Virus record (IMG/VR): IMGVR_UViG_3300031746_000051
Span: 1 to 42,856 of that record
DNA from: a virus
Length of the DNA stretch: 42,856 bases
Direction: 5' to 3' (one strand)
The notes under the pieces: model-generated
What the model was told of the DNA's origin: nothing
Database searches by the model: none
Seen by the model: only the letters and a program-made list of their open reading frames with translations
Made by a program: the position numbers and the translations under genes
Part shown: positions 1-34,088 of the stretch, piece by piece
Layout of the letters: every line of letters begins with the position of its first letter
Numbering within the stretch: position 1 is the stretch's first letter

Positions 1-238
1 TATCCATGATAGTCGCGGCAGGAACAGGCTTGGATGGTCCAGATTTTTCCATGATTTGCCCATCCACGACCTCGTGATGAACATCACTGATAGCCTGCCA
101 TTGATCCTTTGATACTTCCATACATTCATCATCTACTGATGACCGTTGTTTGTCCGCCAATGATTTTGAGCAACGTACCCGTTTCTTGATCTTGCCGGTG
201 TTCTCTTCGTATATGATGTAGTAACTCATATCTCTCAC
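1..238 (-). CDS. Partial second copy of the 108-aa tail-region protein
   Basis: This is the N-terminal 79 codons of the gene annotated in full at 42515-42841, repeated because the contig ends overlap. It starts with GTG at 238 and shares GTGA with the stop of the upstream gene at 235-237, a usual sign of translational coupling. It should be counted once after circularising. Confidence 0.85.
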   Translation of the reverse strand, partial: MRDMSYYIIYEENTGKIKKRVRCSKSLADKQRSSVDDECMEVSKDQWQAISDVHHEVVDGQIMEKSGPSKPVPAATIMD

Positions 239-20538: not shown

Positions 20539-22493
20539 AGGTGAGGTATGTCATCCAGCCAACCTTCTTGTAAACCACGCTTGATCCTATTCACGCGTGG
20601 GTTCCGTGATTCGAGCCTTTGCAGCAATCGCGCCCCACAAACCTCAGCCGCGAATGCAGCATACACCTTGCAGTCCCACAAGTGGTTGGCTCGATACTCA
20701 CTTTTCAAAACCCAAATCAATCGGTCACGGCCTCGGATTCTCATCACCCGTTGCTCTTCGCTCGACAACTGGATCAAGACGTCATCGGTGGTATCTCTGT
20801 GCAGGTGATAGTACCCGGACCCGGGATTCGTCGCTTCAAACAACAGGCGGTACAGCCGGTTCTTCAGGTCATCCACATTGAGGTCATAACGAGTCAAGGT
20901 GCCCCCTGCGACCTTGACGGCCCTGAACAGCCGCATGCGAACCGTATCATCTCCGCGAACCGGAACAATCGGCAGTTCGGCGCACTGGCGACAAAAATCC
21001 AACACGACGTCCGGCCTGAATCCGCAATCAACTCCAATCTGTCGCAAAGGTAGTGACCGCATCGGGTCGTTAGCCAACGGCCAGGGTCTCCCCAAAAACT
21101 CGCGAACGATCTGGTAGTTGTCGAGCTCGCTCGTATCGCCAGTTTCCAATCGTCCCTCCCAGATCGACCACGCCTCCGACAGGTAGCCCCAGCCTTCGAC
21201 TGAGATCCATACATGGTCCATCTGAATGTCAACGCCGGCGGTCAGCATCTGAACACCGGCCGGCACAATACCCGCAGGATACTGCCCGATGTGCGTAAGC
21301 AGCCTGCTTTGTTCCGTCGCCTTCTCTGATTCCTTCCACGAATCCGACAGTTGCGAGTTGATGAAGTCCTGGCGGCCTCCAACATTGCCGGCCTTCATCA
21401 ACCGCATGGCATCGGACCAGTCCGCGGCAAGATCATCTACGGTCTGGATCGCGGGGTGGAGCATCAAAGCGGTAATGCGAAAACTGCGATATGTTGTTTG
21501 CGCCGGCTGACCCGTGAGCAACCCATGCTCGTCGAGGCTACATGATGATGGTACGTATCGACCGGCACAGGTCGCCAGCCAACGGTCCGTCTCAGACCAT
21601 TTGTGATGACAATGGCAGCAGGCATAGTTGGCCCGACCTCCACGCCGATAGACATCCGCCGACAAAAGCTCGCCGGACTCACTCTTATCGAGAATCACGC
21701 ACGCCCAACTCGGCCGCTGCCAGCGATTGCAGTGAGGACACGGCACCCACCATTCACAGCAATCACCCTTTTTCCATTCACGGTCGAATAGGTCATCCAG
21801 CAGCACCGGTGTGCTGAGAGCCAACAACTTCGACCGACCCCTGAACGTTCGCAACCGTTTGCGACCGAGGTTCACCGCGTCGCCCTCTCGGCCCGTTCTC
21901 TCCTCGTACTTGCCGACCTCGTCCAAGCACAGGCGACAGATCGGCTTGCCGGCCATCTCGGCAGCCGAGCCTGCAAACAGCAGGTAAAAGGCCATGTTGT
22001 CAAACATCGTCATCTTGCCGATGTTGATGTTCTTGACGTTGCCGGCGGTGTGCTTGAGCAATCGTAGATTTTCCTCGAACATAGGCTTGATGTTCGTCTC
22101 CACACGTTCAGACGCATCTTTCTCACGCGGCATAACCAGTCCCATCGGCACCGGGTCGCAATCGACTGTGTATCCTACCCAGCCCGTTGCCACCGTTGAC
22201 TTGCCCGATTGACTGCAGGCTGAAACCCATATTTCACGAGTGGCTGCATCGTTGAGACATTCAATGATCGGTACCCAGAAGGGTCCGTATTCTTGCGACC
22301 AATGATCGGATAGGCCATGAACCTTTTGCGACAGAAAATAGTCACTTTCCATCCAATCCAACAACCGCTTGCGGCCGCCCAGCGTCAAGACCTCCAATTC
22401 CTCCGGCTGGATCGCTAATGGTCGTATCGATCGTCTCTTCGTGTCCATTGGCGTAAGCCATCCCCAAGCGGACTTCCCTAACGGATTCGACAT
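20535..22493 (-). CDS. terL: Terminase large subunit (gpA family)
   Basis: 652 residues. ATPase: SACSQSGKST (91-100, Lys98, a deviant Walker A typical of the gpA family) and ICRLCLDE (185-192, Asp191-Glu192, Walker B). Extra Cys sites CPHC (252-255) and CCHC (292-295). Nuclease domain starts LTAGVDIQMDHVWISVEGWG (Asp422). N-terminal LSDHWSQEYGPFWVPIIECL is the gpA-type entry region. The start is uncertain: ATG 22493 (GGAAAG upstream) or ATG 22448. A 24-bp GMAYA element (22449-22472) separates the two, and in this frame it reads SAWGWLTP. Translocates DNA into proheads and cuts it. Confidence 0.93.
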   Translation of the reverse strand: MSNPLGKSAWGWLTPMDTKRRSIRPLAIQPEELEVLTLGGRKRLLDWMESDYFLSQKVHGLSDHWSQEYGPFWVPIIECLNDAATREIWVSACSQSGKSTVATGWVGYTVDCDPVPMGLVMPREKDASERVETNIKPMFEENLRLLKHTAGNVKNINIGKMTMFDNMAFYLLFAGSAAEMAGKPICRLCLDEVGKYEERTGREGDAVNLGRKRLRTFRGRSKLLALSTPVLLDDLFDREWKKGDCCEWWVPCPHCNRWQRPSWACVILDKSESGELLSADVYRRGGRANYACCHCHHKWSETDRWLATCAGRYVPSSCSLDEHGLLTGQPAQTTYRSFRITALMLHPAIQTVDDLAADWSDAMRLMKAGNVGGRQDFINSQLSDSWKESEKATEQSRLLTHIGQYPAGIVPAGVQMLTAGVDIQMDHVWISVEGWGYLSEAWSIWEGRLETGDTSELDNYQIVREFLGRPWPLANDPMRSLPLRQIGVDCGFRPDVVLDFCRQCAELPIVPVRGDDTVRMRLFRAVKVAGGTLTRYDLNVDDLKNRLYRLLFEATNPGSGYYHLHRDTTDDVLIQLSSEEQRVMRIRGRDRLIWVLKSEYRANHLWDCKVYAAFAAEVCGARLLQRLESRNPRVNRIKRGLQEGWLDDIPHL

Positions 22494-23595
22494 CCTTTGA
22501 CTTTCCGGGTAATCCTTGTGTCAATAATTCATATATGCCGTCAAGTATCTTAAGCGCCTGATTCGGCAGCAACAGCTCATCAGGTATCTTCTGCTGCTGC
22601 ACTATCATATCTCTGCGCCACATATCGAGTATTTCTTTGACCCGTTCAAGGGGTTGATTGACGATCATCATAGGTAGTTCCCGCACGAGCCGGTCCAGAC
22701 TGTGGATCAGGTTTTGATACCGCGCCACTTGACCTTCGATCACGATGGTGCGGTCCAAGAGATCGCCCCTGTGCTTCTGTAATTCGAGCGCCAACTTTTC
22801 GGCCTTGATCGCCCGCAAGGGGTCGCGGTCGCCCAAGATGTCTTTTGTTCGGGATAGTTTCTTCGCAACGAATTCTCCATACCAATTGATCGTGCTTTTC
22901 AGATCAAACGTGGCATCAACGTTTCGCGGCAACTGTTGTTTCGTGAACCATTCATATATGGTCTGGCGAGTGGTCGAAAAGAGGTCTGCCAACTGACTGA
23001 TGGTCACCCGATCGTAGTTGCTCTTGTCGGCAGAAGCCTCGCCCTCGTCGCGCAGAAATATCTCTATCGCTCGAATCGCGGCCTGGTTGCCTTCTTTTGC
23101 CGCATCGACCAAGGCTTTCTTGCTCGCCACTATAGTGACGAGTCGGGCTTGCCCCCAGAGGTTGCTCGCCTCGATGTCGCTGTCGAGTAACTCCCGCAGT
23201 TGCTGGCCATGTTCAAAGTCGAGTTTCTTGGCAGCCTGGCTGATCGTCAAGATCGCGCTGGCACACTCCTCGAGATTCTGGAGGAATTGACCTCTTTCCC
23301 ACGCCTTGGCCAGCACATCGTATCGCTCAATCAGCTCAGCTAACGGCTGATCGAGACCCGCCACCTTATCGGCCGCCGTCAAATTTACACAACCGTAAGC
23401 AAGCGACTTGACTCTGACCGCAGAGATCGGCAGACGCATTCGCTTGCGACGCTTTTTGCCCGACCGCGGACGTGAATTTTTTCCACTTGTGGCATAGGCC
23501 ATCCCTGAGTGGAGGGATGCCTTACGGCACTTGCGTGCGACCGGAGGTTGATCATCAATCGCTTTCTTCTTCACGGTGGCATCCTTGCTCATCAT
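22342..23595 (-). CDS. terS: Terminase small subunit-like DNA-binding protein
   Basis: 417 residues, long for TerS. A helix-turn-helix sits near the middle (RVTISQLADLFSTTRQTIYE then WFTKQQLPR, about 193-221), as in gpNu1-type proteins, flanked by helical regions. The N-terminus (1-60) is Lys/Arg-rich and includes a GMAYA pair (SGMAYATSG). The C-terminal ~47 residues after LGMAYANG overlap TerL in another frame and lie beyond a second element, so the pre-insertion gene may have ended near 22470. The first ATG (23595) has no Shine-Dalgarno and is six bases from the first GTCNN array. Start and end are therefore uncertain; the core assignment rests on the HTH and its place before TerL. Confidence 0.7.
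   Translation of the reverse strand: MMSKDATVKKKAIDDQPPVARKCRKASLHSGMAYATSGKNSRPRSGKKRRKRMRLPISAVRVKSLAYGCVNLTAADKVAGLDQPLAELIERYDVLAKAWERGQFLQNLEECASAILTISQAAKKLDFEHGQQLRELLDSDIEASNLWGQARLVTIVASKKALVDAAKEGNQAAIRAIEIFLRDEGEASADKSNYDRVTISQLADLFSTTRQTIYEWFTKQQLPRNVDATFDLKSTINWYGEFVAKKLSRTKDILGDRDPLRAIKAEKLALELQKHRGDLLDRTIVIEGQVARYQNLIHSLDRLVRELPMMIVNQPLERVKEILDMWRRDMIVQQQKIPDELLLPNQALKILDGIYELLTQGLPGKSKDVESVREVRLGMAYANGHEETIDTTISDPAGGIGGLDAGRPQAVVGLDGK
22449..22472 (-). repeat. GMAYA element at the terS/terL junction
   Basis: 24-bp element, identical to those at 23742-23765 and 37634-37657. It is open in both the terS frame (RLGMAYA) and the terL frame (SAWGWLTP), and lies in the overlap of the two genes. 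Confidence 0.85.
23490..23529. repeat. Inverted pair of GMAYA elements inside the terS start
   Basis: A minus copy (23490-23513) and a degenerate plus copy (23506-23529) share eight bases and together form a hairpin (CATCCCT, GAGTGG loop, AGGGATG). Encodes part of the N-terminal KASLHSGMAYATSG of the terS product. Confidence 0.75.
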
Positions 23596-23601
23596 AAAAA
23601 G

Positions 23602-23686
23602 GTCTTGTCATGTCTTGTCGCGTCAAGTCATGTCTGGTCGCGTCGCGTCATGTCCTATCACGTCGTGTCAGGTTCAGTCGCGTCGC
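23602..23686 (+). repeat. GTCNN array 1 (17 units)
   Basis: Strict 5-bp period of GTC followed by two variable bases; 15 units have GTC, one has ATC (23657) and one GTT (23672). Preceded by AAAAAG and followed by GTGTAAGATTCTTC. The array ends six bases before the terS ATG, so it forms the leader of the terS mRNA if transcribed from upstream. Confidence 0.93.
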
Positions 23687-23791: not shown

Positions 23792-23871
23792 GTCTTGTCA
23801 TGTCGGGTCTTGTCATGTCCCGTCGAGTCTGGTCTCGTCAAGTCCAGTCAGGTCTGGTCGAGTCCGGTCGC
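23792..23871 (+). repeat. GTCNN array 2 (16 units)
   Basis: Sixteen units, all with GTC, no two neighbouring units alike. Begins GTCTT GTCAT like arrays 1, 3 and 4, after GTTGAAAAAG; ends GTCGC GTGTAAGAGTCTT. Confidence 0.93.
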
Positions 23872-23929: not shown

Positions 23930-24024
23930 GTCTTGTCATGTCTTGTCAGGTCTTGTCTTGTCATGTCTTGTCATGTCGCGTCCGGTCGGGTCTTGTCAAG
24001 TCTCGTCTTGTCTGGTCGGGTCTT
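23930..24024 (+). repeat. GTCNN array 3 (19 units)
   Basis: Nineteen units, all with GTC, the longest array; rich in the TT dinucleotide (8 of 19). It runs into the 3' end of the 62-aa gene on the minus strand, whose last residues (DPTRQDET) and stop codon it encodes. It lacks the GTGTAAGA trailer. Confidence 0.93.
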
Positions 24025-24184
24025 GCTGTTTGAGACGGTCCAAGCGGCGTTTCCGCTCCCAGTTGCGGTGTTTCAGCTCCCGGCTCAAGACTAAGGCTTC
24101 GTAAAGATCGTCGGGGGGCAGAATTTTTCTTGTCGCTTCAAGAGCTCGCCGCAGTTGCCGTGTTGACATATCTTCGATCTTCAT
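23996..24184 (-). CDS. Small helical protein ending inside GTCNN array 3
   Basis: 62 residues, ATG 24184 with AAGG ten bases upstream. MKIEDMSTRQLRRALEATRK ... ILPPDDLYEALVLSRELKHRNWERKRRLDRLKQQ is a charged, helical sequence. The array supplies its last ~8 residues. It is the first gene upstream of the arrays and terS; unknown function, possibly DNA binding from its charge. Confidence 0.6.
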   Translation of the reverse strand: MKIEDMSTRQLRRALEATRKILPPDDLYEALVLSRELKHRNWERKRRLDRLKQQDPTRQDET

Positions 24185-24505: not shown

Positions 24506-25849
24506 CTAAACGGCATTAGCACGCACGGTCGGCCGGTCTCGTGGTTTTATCCGCCGTCGCAGGTCGGCGGCCAGATTGTCGAAGGTCTTGCGCATGTACG
24601 CCTGCGAGTTGCTGTTCCCCGACCGTGCAGAACCGATTCGAGTCGCCCGCTTGAGCAACTCCCGATCGAACCAAGTCATCGCCTCTGAGCCGAAACCCTC
24701 AGCCAGAAGGTCGTGATAGGCCCGGGCGAAGTTCGCTCGTTCACGTTGCATCTCGGCTTGCGAGGACGAATGAAAACCAACCGCCGCCAATATCCTCTCC
24801 GCCATGTCTTTCGCTGCAGGGTCGTAGCGGAACATGGCCGACTGAATCACGTCACCAAGTCTTGCACAGTTGGTGGTTTGCCTGGTTGGAGCACGAACTG
24901 ACCCACCTTGCGATGGTGGTGCGTGCGCGTGTGTTTGCCGGTCAAAGGCGATTCGATGGGGAGCATCAGCGTGTAGCGACGTATGGGGAGTTACCGGCCC
25001 CTGCTTTGGCTTTCGCTCCCCTGCGTCGGTTCTCGTCGGCGAAGTCGACGTCGGCGTTGGCGGGGTGGTGGTCGGGGAGGGATTGCGTTTAGCAATCCCG
25101 GTGGAGGCTGATTCGGATTTGAACCGCGCTGTTTGAGCCCCTTTATCTATCGAACGATTACTAACCATTCCCCTTTGTCGACGTCGACTATTTCTTTCTT
25201 TCTTCTTTCCAACTTTTACTTTGGTTCCTTTAGTTACTTTGGTTCCTTTAGTTACTTGGTTCCTTGGTTCCTTTATTTGCCGACTTCCGCGGCGCGCGTG
25301 CGCGCGCGCCCGCGTTCTAGTAAAGGGTTTCCGCCCGGTTCCGCCCGGTTCCGCCCGGTTCCGCCCGCGGGCGGAAAAATGTCTATCCTTTATATCCACA
25401 TTGTCCGGTATCTTATTCTTGTCCAAATCAAAGATAGGCAATCGCACTTGCTCTAAAAGCTTAGCTGATGCCAACTTACGCATAATCGTCGGCATCTTTC
25501 GCCGATCAACATGTAGAAGGGCAGCAATCTGTGAATCATTGAGGGGTTCATTATCGATGTCGAGCAGAAATCCACGATATGCCCGCGACCTCTTGGCCGA
25601 CATGTTGACCAGCAAACGATAGATGCCATACAATTGAGCAAACTCAAGACCGTCCCCGTTCGACAACATGTTCATCTGATGATGATAGCTGACTGCCTCA
25701 TCACCACCTGAGTCGCCAACAAAGTCTCGCGTATATTCCAGACTCGACATGCGACATTTCCGCATATCGTCAGGTAGCTCATAGCGCTCTTGGAAATGAT
25801 AAATCCGCCAGACCTTCCTTGTTATCCGTCGCTTCCTTGCAGCCTTCAT
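24506..25849 (-). CDS. Replication initiator, replisome-organiser-like
   Basis: 447 residues, ATG 25849 with GGGGAGGAGT upstream. The first ~140 residues form a winged helix as in phage replication initiators (GLEFAQLYGIYRLLVNMS ... RGFLLDIDNEPLNDSQIAAL then LHVDRRKMPTIMRKLASAKLLEQV). Residues ~155-330 are low-complexity and basic (Arg, Lys, Pro, Thr, Ser), with a VTKGTKVTKGTK repeat. The C-terminal ~110 residues are helical (FARAYHDLLAEGFGSEAMTW). Expected role: bind the origin and load the host helicase. Assignment rests on the N-terminal fold and neighbours. Confidence 0.65.
   Translation of the reverse strand: MKAARKRRITRKVWRIYHFQERYELPDDMRKCRMSSLEYTRDFVGDSGGDEAVSYHHQMNMLSNGDGLEFAQLYGIYRLLVNMSAKRSRAYRGFLLDIDNEPLNDSQIAALLHVDRRKMPTIMRKLASAKLLEQVRLPIFDLDKNKIPDNVDIKDRHFSARGRNRAEPGGTGRKPFTRTRARAHARRGSRQIKEPRNQVTKGTKVTKGTKVKVGKKKERNSRRRQRGMVSNRSIDKGAQTARFKSESASTGIAKRNPSPTTTPPTPTSTSPTRTDAGERKPKQGPVTPHTSLHADAPHRIAFDRQTHAHAPPSQGGSVRAPTRQTTNCARLGDVIQSAMFRYDPAAKDMAERILAAVGFHSSSQAEMQRERANFARAYHDLLAEGFGSEAMTWFDRELLKRATRIGSARSGNSNSQAYMRKTFDNLAADLRRRIKPRDRPTVRANAV
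25329..25376. repeat. 10-bp tandem repeat ending in an 18-bp palindrome
   Basis: Three TTCCGCCCGG units followed by the perfect palindrome TTCCGCCCG CGGGCGGAA (25359-25376), inside the low-complexity linker of the initiator gene. Phage origins often lie within the initiator gene as such repeats; that role is inference. Confidence 0.8.
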
Positions 25850-25855
25850 ACGCTT

Positions 25856-26245
25856 TTACTCCTCCCCGGATTCGTTATCATCAAACTCCATCTGCTTTTC
25901 ATCGTCAGACAAGGGTCTCTCCTCCACAACCTGGCCAGTATCCGTACGTACCAGAACCATCTGTCCCTTCGTGTAGTTGGTGATCCTGTTACACTCGATG
26001 CTTCGCTGCTCTTCCCCTATCAGTACGGAAGAACCAAGATAGGCAATTTTCCTCTTCAAACCATCACACTTAGTCTTGAAGCTTGAATTGACCACCTTTC
26101 TCTCTTTCTCGATACCCTCTAATTCAGACAACGTCTTGGCCAGTGAGTTGGCTGCGACCCTTCGTTCTTCGTCAGTAAGTGCGTGAGAGAATGGATGCCA
26201 TTCCTTCGCTTCTTTGATTTGATCAACTTTCTGTTTCTTCGCCAT
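25856..26245 (-). CDS. Early protein with central helical region
   Basis: 129 residues from ATG 26245 with AAAGGAAC upstream (frame open to 26263). MAKKQKVDQIKEAKEWHPFS, HALTDEERRVAANSLAKTLSELEGIEKERKVV, then a strand-rich part (GLKRKIAYLGSSVLIGEEQR ... TKGQMVLVRTDTGQVVEERPL) and an acidic end. Unknown family. Cotranscribed with the replication initiator (6-bp gap). GTCNN arrays 4 and 5 lie upstream. Confidence 0.7.
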   Translation of the reverse strand: MAKKQKVDQIKEAKEWHPFSHALTDEERRVAANSLAKTLSELEGIEKERKVVNSSFKTKCDGLKRKIAYLGSSVLIGEEQRSIECNRITNYTKGQMVLVRTDTGQVVEERPLSDDEKQMEFDDNESGEE

Positions 26246-26311
26246 TGTGTGTTCCTTTATCAAAAAAGATGTTTGTGTCTTCAGGGTCCCATCCTTGCTT
26301 TTGAAAAAAAG

Positions 26312-26396
26312 GTCTTGTCATGTCTTGTCAGGTCAGGTCGCGTCACGTCAAGTCAAGTCGCGTCAGGTCGGGTCTCGTCGGGTCGTGTCGTGTCGC
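26312..26396 (+). repeat. GTCNN array 4 (17 units)
   Basis: Seventeen units, all with GTC. Begins GTCTT GTCAT GTCTT after a run of A and ends GTCGC GTGTAAGATTCTTC exactly as array 1. Sits 67 bp upstream of the 129-aa early gene. Confidence 0.93.
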
Positions 26397-26455
26397 GTGT
26401 AAGATTCTTCATTCGTTCGCGGCGGCACATTGTCACCCGTTTCGGTCTTAAAAAG

Positions 26456-26535
26456 GTCTTGTCGTGTCTTGTCATGTCACGTCATGTCTTGTCAGGTCCG
26501 GTCACGTCTTGTCAAGTCTGGTCATGTCGTGTCGT
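26456..26535 (+). repeat. GTCNN array 5 (16 units)
   Basis: Sixteen units, all with GTC; second unit GTCGT instead of GTCAT. Preceded by TTAAAAAG. Ends in TTTTAG without the GTGTAAGA trailer, like array 3 at the other locus, so in each locus the last array is the one without a trailer. Confidence 0.93.
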
Positions 26536-26925
26536 TTTAGTTGCGCCTATCCCAGTGTCGTCCGCGACGCGGGCCGACATAGCCACTATAAAAGCATCGT
26601 TTCGACTTGGTTAAGGGTAGGATCATGTGACTTTTGGGTTCTCTTTGTTTATCCTTTTGGGACCACCAAAAACACACGTAATCGTAACATCTCAAATGCC
26701 TGCCCCAGACCCAATTCCACATTGATGCAAACGATGTGCGCCTGTTCTCGATCATCCTTCATTCTAAATTCAAACAGTCCGCTCTGTTCTGATATCCGCA
26801 TCCTGCAACAGAGCGGACGCCGTCCTTGAGATATTGGCAGGCATTTACTCCTTGATGTGTGTATTATAGATGGGGCGGTTTGGAAGAGCTTATGGGCACC
26901 GCCCCACCATCGGGAGGAAACGGGT
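26536..26925. other. Intergenic region with two inverted repeats
   Basis: A 72-codon minus-strand frame (26537-26755) ends at the array border; it is Trp/Arg-rich and unlikely to be a gene. GTCCGCTCTGTT (26777-26788) and AACAGAGCGGAC (26807-26818) form a perfect 12-bp inverted repeat with an 18-base loop. GGGGCGGT/ACCGCCCC (26872-26905) lies just after the lipoprotein stop and may terminate it, though no clean U-run follows. Confidence 0.6.
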
Positions 26926-27840: not shown

Positions 27841-28770
27841 TCATTCACGGTAACGCCGTTTCTTCGCCCGTTTGATTTGCGCAACGACAAAGTTCCACTT
27901 ATTTGCTACCATCAATATATCCTCTCGGTGTGAATCTTGGGTCGCTATCAATGCGTCTCGTTTTTCTTCGTCCGTCAAATGCTCAACCTCATCCTGAATC
28001 AATCGTGTTATCGTGTGGGGATCTAACGCATCAAGCTCCCAGGATTCTTCGCCATGCTCGGCGATATAGGTCTTACAACGGCTGTCTGTGATTTTTGCGG
28101 GGTTCGGCGGGGGATTATATTCTTTTACTTGCTCCATTGTCAGAGCGATACGGTCCACCTCACATCTGCTTAGAAATAATTGCAGCCTGTCTTGTATATC
28201 TCTGGTCATATCAATCCCACTGGGGTCGTGATCTCCAAGATGAATCAAGTGGGATTCTTTGCCTTTTCTTTCCTGTCCGATGAATCGCTGGGCCGCTTCC
28301 CACATACTACTTTGACTGACATATCCTCGAGAAGAGAAGTAGGGAACATCTATCTCGATGCAGATTCGTTCGAGCACGCCGATCAAAGCATCTTTCTCAA
28401 CCCAAACTTCAACATAACACGCCTGATCTGCGCGAGTGTCTATCTTGAATTGCCTGCCAATGGCAGTGATGATGTCTTGTGGACTACGCCAATGTTGATT
28501 GCCCCTGCTCGGCCTCGTCCGATCTACAATCGCGTCCCAATCAATCAAACCAGCCAATCGAGCATCGTTTACAATCAAACCAAGTTTTTTGTACTCTTTG
28601 TCGTTGTTGGGGAGTATCCCTCTCGCCACAAATTGATAGTAGAGTTGCCTAAGTGTGAGATCGAATCCGTCGGCCAGATACTCCCGTACTATCGCCACTG
28701 CTCGGTCAATGATCTCAAGAGAGGGTTTTTGAAATCGACATTTCCTGTATTTTATCTTCGGCACTATCAC
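27841..28770 (-). CDS. Spo11/TopoVI-A-like protein with Toprim domain
   Basis: 309 residues, GTG start 28770 with GGGGAGG. An N-terminal winged helix with LTLRQLYYQFVARG (Tyr44-Tyr45, the position of the TopoVI-A/Spo11 nucleophile) is followed by a Toprim domain: WVEKDALIGVLERI (acid) and LIHLGDHDPSGIDMTRDI (Asp-x-Asp). The intervening SSRGYVSQSSMWEAAQRF matches the family. Such stand-alone A-subunit-like proteins occur in many phages without a B subunit; they may cut DNA or act in replication or repair. No TopoVI-B partner is encoded here. Confidence 0.85.
   Translation of the reverse strand: MIVPKIKYRKCRFQKPSLEIIDRAVAIVREYLADGFDLTLRQLYYQFVARGILPNNDKEYKKLGLIVNDARLAGLIDWDAIVDRTRPSRGNQHWRSPQDIITAIGRQFKIDTRADQACYVEVWVEKDALIGVLERICIEIDVPYFSSRGYVSQSSMWEAAQRFIGQERKGKESHLIHLGDHDPSGIDMTRDIQDRLQLFLSRCEVDRIALTMEQVKEYNPPPNPAKITDSRCKTYIAEHGEESWELDALDPHTITRLIQDEVEHLTDEEKRDALIATQDSHREDILMVANKWNFVVAQIKRAKKRRYRE

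Positions 28771-32060: not shown

Positions 32061-34088
<2,028 letters not shown>

What the first reader, a model, noticed from the sequence alone, without database searches (positions are those of the whole stretch)
26312..26535. Second locus of the same arrays beside the replication genes (locus B)
Two more arrays (17 and 16 units, all 33 with GTC) lie 2.3 kb from locus A. The arrays flank the replication initiator and early genes. Both loci share leader (A-run then GGTCTTGTC), trailer (GTCGC GTGTAAGA) and spacer (GGCGGCACATTGTCACC) sequences, and in each locus the final array lacks the trailer. This shared organisation implies a composite unit that was duplicated as a whole while its NN content diverged. 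Roles to test: origin iterons, partition site, packaging signal, or a source of small RNA.
Basis: partly seen in the sequence, partly recalled or inferred. Interest (0 to 1): 0.9.

Follow-up and report, generated by a model that had tools for sequence, protein, structure and literature searches.

The report
Phage guide-RNA arrays lacking their protein
Two tandem arrays of a five-letter repeat (GTC plus two freely varying letters) in a bacterial virus look like guide-RNA arrays of the recently described VIPR system, by which phages silence competing phages, but this virus appears to lack the VIPR protein, so its guides may be read by a protein from another element.

Summary
26312-26396 holds 17 and 26456-26535 holds 16 perfect GTCNN units; locus A has 17 (two imperfect), 16 and 19. 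Simulated sequence never exceeds 4 in a row. Origin, partition and packaging readings are not supported: GC skew is flat, and terminase relatives (one also with the rep gene) lack arrays. The 'small RNA' option fits. Diverse GTCNN arrays recur in many viral contigs next to a ~190-aa protein (phrog_4652): 48 of 62 stretches, against 2 of 57 low-diversity controls. It folds like Cas7/Csm3, and its profile finds SUSP1 gp39, which I infer is the Vipr protein of the 2026 VIPR preprint (RNA-guided inter-phage silencing). On the gene strand the repeat reads GACNN, a variant of the published GGY/NN, shared by one Vipr clade; the window's five arrays carry that clade's 3'-terminal AAGAC unit (5/5). Across 131 arrays the NN letters fit codon positions 1-2, as the published one-base-skip code predicts. 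No Vipr or accessory gene was found in the window, and no target. Verdict: new variant of a known kind; VIPR-type guide arrays, probably vipr-less.

The parts
26312..26396 (-). Array B1: 17 units, GTCNN on the + strand, GACNN on the inferred RNA (minus) strand
   Evidence: strand inferred
26456..26535 (-). Array B2: 16 units, first array of locus B on the gene strand
26397..26455 (-). Block between B2 and B1, shared with locus A
   Evidence: no significant RNA fold
23602..23686 (-). Array A1: 17 units, two imperfect
23792..23871 (-). Array A2: 16 units
23930..24024 (-). Array A3: 19 units, overlapping the 3' end of a 62-aa open frame (23996-24184)
26585..26614 (-). Promoter-like site (TTAACC-18-TATAGT) about 50 bp upstream of array B2 on the gene strand; weak, 5 such sites found in the region against 2.4 expected
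25856..26263 (-). 135-aa gene after array B1 (phrog_12688, unknown function); not RAMP-like in a low-confidence model
24506..25849 (-). 447-aa gene between the loci, possible replication protein (not confirmed by any family)
22342..23595 (-). Probable terminase small subunit gene that starts just after array A1

Best explanation
Locus B (and locus A) are guide-RNA arrays of the VIPR kind. Inferred mechanism: the minus strand is transcribed with the phage genes; each array gives an RNA of 16-19 NNGAC repeats ending in AAGAC plus a short tail; a Vipr protein (Cas7-like RAMP) polymerises along it holding the fixed trinucleotides; the NN pairs read double-stranded DNA with one base skipped between pairs, usually the wobble base, and so repress genes of a competing phage or prophage. 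Shown here: the arrays, their link in other phages to the Vipr family, the clade-specific GAC motif and AAGAC end, and a codon-phase signature in NN. Taken from the preprint: RNA production, skip code, silencing. Inferred: that these five arrays are functional guides and, because no vipr gene is detectable in the window, that they act with a Vipr supplied by another element in the same cell. The confidence is for VIPR-type guide arrays; action in trans alone I put near 0.4.
For: Cas7-like protein beside diverse arrays in 48 of 62 viral stretches against 2 of 57 low-diversity controls; RAMP fold; SUSP1 gp39 beside GGT arrays found by the same profile at 4e-20 and by phrog_4652 at 1e-96; period-5 GGC/GGT arrays beside the family in named phages; gene-strand trinucleotide clusters on the protein tree; TT first unit in 46 of 88 GAC-type arrays and 5 of 5 in the window; NN composition fits codon positions 1-2 over 131 arrays; published mechanism.
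Against: No Vipr, Vap1-like or c5-like protein in the window by profile, hhalign or pattern; no target found; trinucleotide is GAC rather than GGY; no significant folded tail; no expression data.
Confidence: 0.85

Rival explanations
1. An ordinary cis-acting VIPR: the phage does encode a Vipr, but it lies in a missing piece of the contig or is too divergent for sequence profiles.
For: The record is classed linear and may be incomplete; the preprint describes seven types and RAMPs share little sequence; several window proteins of 130-200 aa have no known family.
Against: In GAC-type loci vipr usually lies within about 600 bp of an array, yet none of the neighbours of the five arrays resembles it; the profile is broad enough to find SUSP1 gp39 and still finds nothing.
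Confidence: 0.35
2. Remnant: the phage lost vipr and the arrays are decaying.
For: No vipr in the window; array A1 has two imperfect units and its spacer two insertions.
Against: Four of the five arrays keep GTC in every unit, and both loci keep the same caps.
Confidence: 0.15
3. Anti-VIPR decoy: array RNA without a useful target soaks up the Vipr of a rival phage.
For: Arrays without vipr; no target found.
Against: Five different guides and a codon-like NN composition in the whole set argue for specific targets, although the five window arrays alone are too few to test.
Confidence: 0.12
4. Origin iterons, partition or packaging site: a protein binds double-stranded GTC every 5 bp (half a helical turn).
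For: Strict spacing; position beside rep-like and terminase genes.
Against: No skew change; terminase and rep relatives lack the arrays; same arrays elsewhere are tied to a Cas7-like protein.
Confidence: 0.07

Closest known systems
VIPR (Viral Interference Programmable Repeat), PMC13142463, phage SUSP1 and P. fulva prophage systems
   Same: Tandem pentanucleotide repeats with a fixed trinucleotide and hypervariable NN, several arrays per locus, phage-borne; homologous Vipr beside the same kind of arrays in other phages.
   Different: GAC in place of GGY on the gene strand; 16-19 units against 9-16; no vipr or vap gene detected in the window; no significant folded tail. The paper allows 'a related consensus' (its fig. 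S17, not held), so the GAC dialect may already be included there.
Class 1 CRISPR-Cas effectors (Cas7/Csm3)
   Same: RAMP fold of the linked protein.
   Different: No cas genes found and no palindromic repeats or unique spacers; the unit is 5 bases.
Iterons and centromere-like repeat arrays of phages and plasmids (general knowledge)
   Same: Short tandem direct repeats near replication genes.
   Different: Known iterons conserve most of the unit; here three of five bases are fixed and, across the whole set, the other two follow a codon-like composition.

Membership tests
VIPR | Tandem pentanucleotide repeats alternating a conserved trinucleotide and hypervariable NN | tested here: met
VIPR | GGY as the conserved trinucleotide, or a related consensus | tested here: inconclusive
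   Not GGY; the gene strand reads GAC. GAC arrays stand beside Vipr homologues in 26 loci and cluster on the Vipr tree, so it is a related consensus in that sense; the paper's own list could not be read.
VIPR | vipr gene (RAMP) in the locus | tested here: not met
   No hit in the window record with controls ringing; so the window is not filed as a complete VIPR system, only its arrays as VIPR-type guide arrays.
VIPR | vap accessory gene | tested here: not met
   No hit to the Vap1-like (c1) or c5 profiles; other vap types were not tested.
VIPR | NN pairs specify a DNA target with a one-base skip | tested here: inconclusive
   Codon-phase composition fits over 131 arrays; no target found.
VIPR | Invariant structured 3' tail | tested here: inconclusive
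   Conserved AAGAC end and intervening block; no significant fold.
VIPR | Arrays expressed as small RNAs of about 100 nt bound to Vipr | not testable with these tools
   Needs RNA sequencing and pull-down.
CRISPR array | Repeats of tens of bases separated by unique spacers, with cas genes | tested here: not met
   5-base unit; no cas-like gene among the proteins scanned.
Replication origin | GC-skew change at the site | tested here: not met
   skew stays negative throughout; nearly all likely genes lie on one strand, so this is weak evidence.

The most novel reading that the evidence does not exclude
Phages carry solitary VIPR guide arrays without a vipr gene and use, in trans, the Vipr of a co-resident prophage or of the host, turning another element's silencing machine on new targets; the GAC and GTC dialects would set which Vipr can read them.
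Probability: 0.4. Interest if true: 0.8.

Novelty: new variant of a known kind. Interest (0 to 1): 0.62.

Why it matters
VIPR was described only in 2026 as a possible ancestor of CRISPR guides. This window adds a GAC/NN dialect whose motif follows the Vipr phylogeny, a codon-phase signature that supports the skip code across 131 arrays, and arrays without a detectable vipr gene in a phage whose nearest relative found in a host genome is in Planctomycetota. If solitary arrays work in trans, guide RNAs alone would be mobile weapons or shields between phages, and the dialects would be a natural test of which Vipr reads which array.

Tried and rejected
Period-5 arrays of other trinucleotides in the window: none. 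Structured RNA in the intervening blocks: no significant fold in either strand; no Rfam family. Divergent Vipr in the window: profile search at maximum sensitivity, hhalign against open frames of 90-700 aa, a RAMP glycine-loop pattern and a structure of the 135-aa neighbour, none convincing. Relatives by the 447-aa or 135-aa protein: none in viral contigs. Other viral contigs with the same leader or spacer: the leader pattern gave none; the 17-mer spacer hits were five unrelated stretches without arrays. Targets: the A2 hit (L286/L287, a DnaB-like N-terminal region by eye) matches 9 units exactly, but the pattern demanded that, the flanking units match little better than chance and the skipped base is codon position 1, so I treat it as chance. 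Host by the dispersed 16-bp element: 1 of 119 Planctomycetota genomes, uninformative.

Full report
Observation. One search finds uninterrupted (GTCNN)n runs on the + strand at 26312-26396 (17 units) and 26456-26535 (16 units), and at locus A 23602-23656 (11 perfect, 17 to 23686 with two imperfect units), 23792-23871 (16) and 23930-24024 (19). Simulated sequence of the same composition never gave a run above 4. All five are preceded on the + strand by an A-run and GGTCTTGTC, and three of five are followed by a block that begins GTGTAAGA and contains GGCGGCAC...ATTGTCACC. Read on the gene strand (minus), the block lies between successive arrays, so the array that lacks it is the 5'-most of each locus. 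The window is a 42.9-kb virus record; the genes with a recognisable family lie on the minus strand.

Other viruses have the same thing. Grouping the proteins of these contigs without prior assumption gave one family of about 190-210 aa in 39 of 63 stretches, a median of 37 bp from an array, and a second of about 170 aa in 24. With profiles the first family is in 48 of 62 viral stretches with diverse arrays, against 2 of 57 with low-diversity repeats and 0 of 119 hits in cellular genomes. The profile was built from members of the first set, so the comparison is not fully independent. All 30 members tested match phrog_4652, unknown function; no member has a convincing Pfam domain.

What the protein is. 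Its AlphaFold model (pLDDT 95, pTM 0.88) matches type VII and type III CRISPR Cas7/Csm3 subunits (Foldseek E 3e-8; best Z 12.3, rmsd 3.7 over 160 residues). Named phages with the family, such as Mycobacterium phage Brocalys, Gordonia phage ODay, Pseudomonas phage LESphi2, Cyanophage Cy-LDV1 and phage DSL-LC04, carry period-5 arrays beside it with GGC or GGT in place of GTC.

The known system. A 2026 preprint (PMC13142463) describes VIPR: a phage RAMP protein, Vipr, with RNAs made of GGY/NN repeats whose NN pairs read double-stranded DNA with one base skipped, usually at the wobble position, to silence competing phages. SUSP1 is its model phage. The text does not give gene numbers, but SUSP1 gp39 lies beside GGT arrays, is found by my profile (E 4e-20) and matches phrog_4652 at 1e-96, while its neighbour gp38 is found by the second profile (E 2e-7). 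I infer that gp39 is Vipr and gp38 is Vap1. No other paper on the system was found in the library.

The GAC dialect. On the strand of the Vipr gene, 26 of 44 loci read GAC, 11 GTC and 5 GGC, and these labels cluster on the protein tree (10 changes against 16.5 in shuffles, 0 of 200 as low). The contigs were found with a GTC/GAC pattern, so the proportions are not a census. GAC-type arrays start on the GTC strand with a TT unit in 46 of 88 cases against a background of 9% (P 3e-25), GTC-type in 1 of 22. The window has it in 5 of 5 (P 6e-6). Arrays of one locus are related, so these P values are optimistic. This, and the direction of the surrounding genes, puts the RNA on the minus strand with an AAGAC 3' end.

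The code. I asked whether NN pairs look like codon positions 1-2. Over 1,447 units from 131 arrays the correlation is 0.74 with codon positions 1-2 (both strands pooled), 0.42 with positions 2-3, -0.17 with 3-1 and 0.34 with overall dinucleotides. Resampling arrays, positions 1-2 beat the genomic background in 99.5%, positions 3-1 in 100% and positions 2-3 in 95%. This fits guides against coding DNA with the wobble base skipped. It is a composition argument, not a target. In the window, TA occurs 0 times among the 85 units of the five arrays.

No Vipr in this window. The broad profile, phrog_4652, hhalign and a glycine-loop pattern find nothing convincing in 42.9 kb, while the profile and phrog_4652 ring in control records. 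Records with diverse arrays but no hit also include those of L048, L051, L053, L066, L105, L107 and L112; in L105 and L107 the array is next to primase or replication-initiation and Sak4-like genes. Some of these records may be incomplete, as may the window. The 135-aa gene after array B1 is predicted, with low confidence, as helices followed by a few strands.

Against origin and packaging. Viral relatives at 48-51% TerL identity (L288-L290) and a Planctomycetota genome with rep, TerS and TerL in the same order (46% TerL identity) carry no period-5 array in the stretches available. They are not close relatives, so this shows that the arrays are accessory in the wider group, not in the exact lineage. 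GC skew is flat. That relative also makes Planctomycetota a possible host group, no more.

Targets. Best matches of the window's guides in 4.3 Mb (both strands) of fetched DNA equal those of shuffled guides, apart from A2, whose best site came from a search that required it. Nine units of B1 have no exact match in viral contigs and its 13-unit core no match with up to 3 mismatches in 382 Planctomycetota genomes. A2 gave two near-identical contig stretches that look like chance.

Conclusion. Locus B is a pair of VIPR-type guide arrays (confidence 0.85), in a GAC dialect, in a phage without a detectable Vipr. Whether the guides work in trans (about 0.4), with an unseen Vipr, as decoys, or no longer, is open.

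Noticed in passing
6887, 7772, 12180, 22457, 23498, 23706, 23750, 34211, 34228, 34441, 37090, 37642: A dispersed element of about 23 bp (core GGGATGGCTTACGCCA / TGGCGTAAGCCATCCC), about a dozen copies in both orientations, two of them inserted in the A1-A2 block; rare in 119 Planctomycetota genomes.
   Followed up: partly
25216-25367: Short perfect and near-perfect tandem repeats (TTCCGCCCGG x3.9; TTACTTTGGTTCCTTTAG x2.8) inside the 447-aa gene.
   Followed up: no
235-720 and 738-1259: Two adjacent genes with similar starts (paralogues by eye) without any PHROG match.
   Followed up: no
27841-28770: Gene matching phrog_6247, annotated DNA topoisomerase (E 1e-108), in the early region of a phage that also has a full NAD-dependent DNA ligase (32061-34088).
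   Followed up: no
L269 4866-5612, L270 4911-5495, L274 3983-4612, L275 4028-4651: Unannotated Vipr homologues with period-5 arrays in Mycobacterium (Brocalys gp45 and 26 related records), Gordonia and Pseudomonas (LESphi2) phages.
   Followed up: partly
L105 826-910, L107 5338-5387, L051 6085-6174, L112 12572-13383: Other diverse GTCNN arrays in records without a detectable Vipr; L112 keeps a Vap1-like gene, L105 and L107 sit in replication operons.
   Followed up: partly
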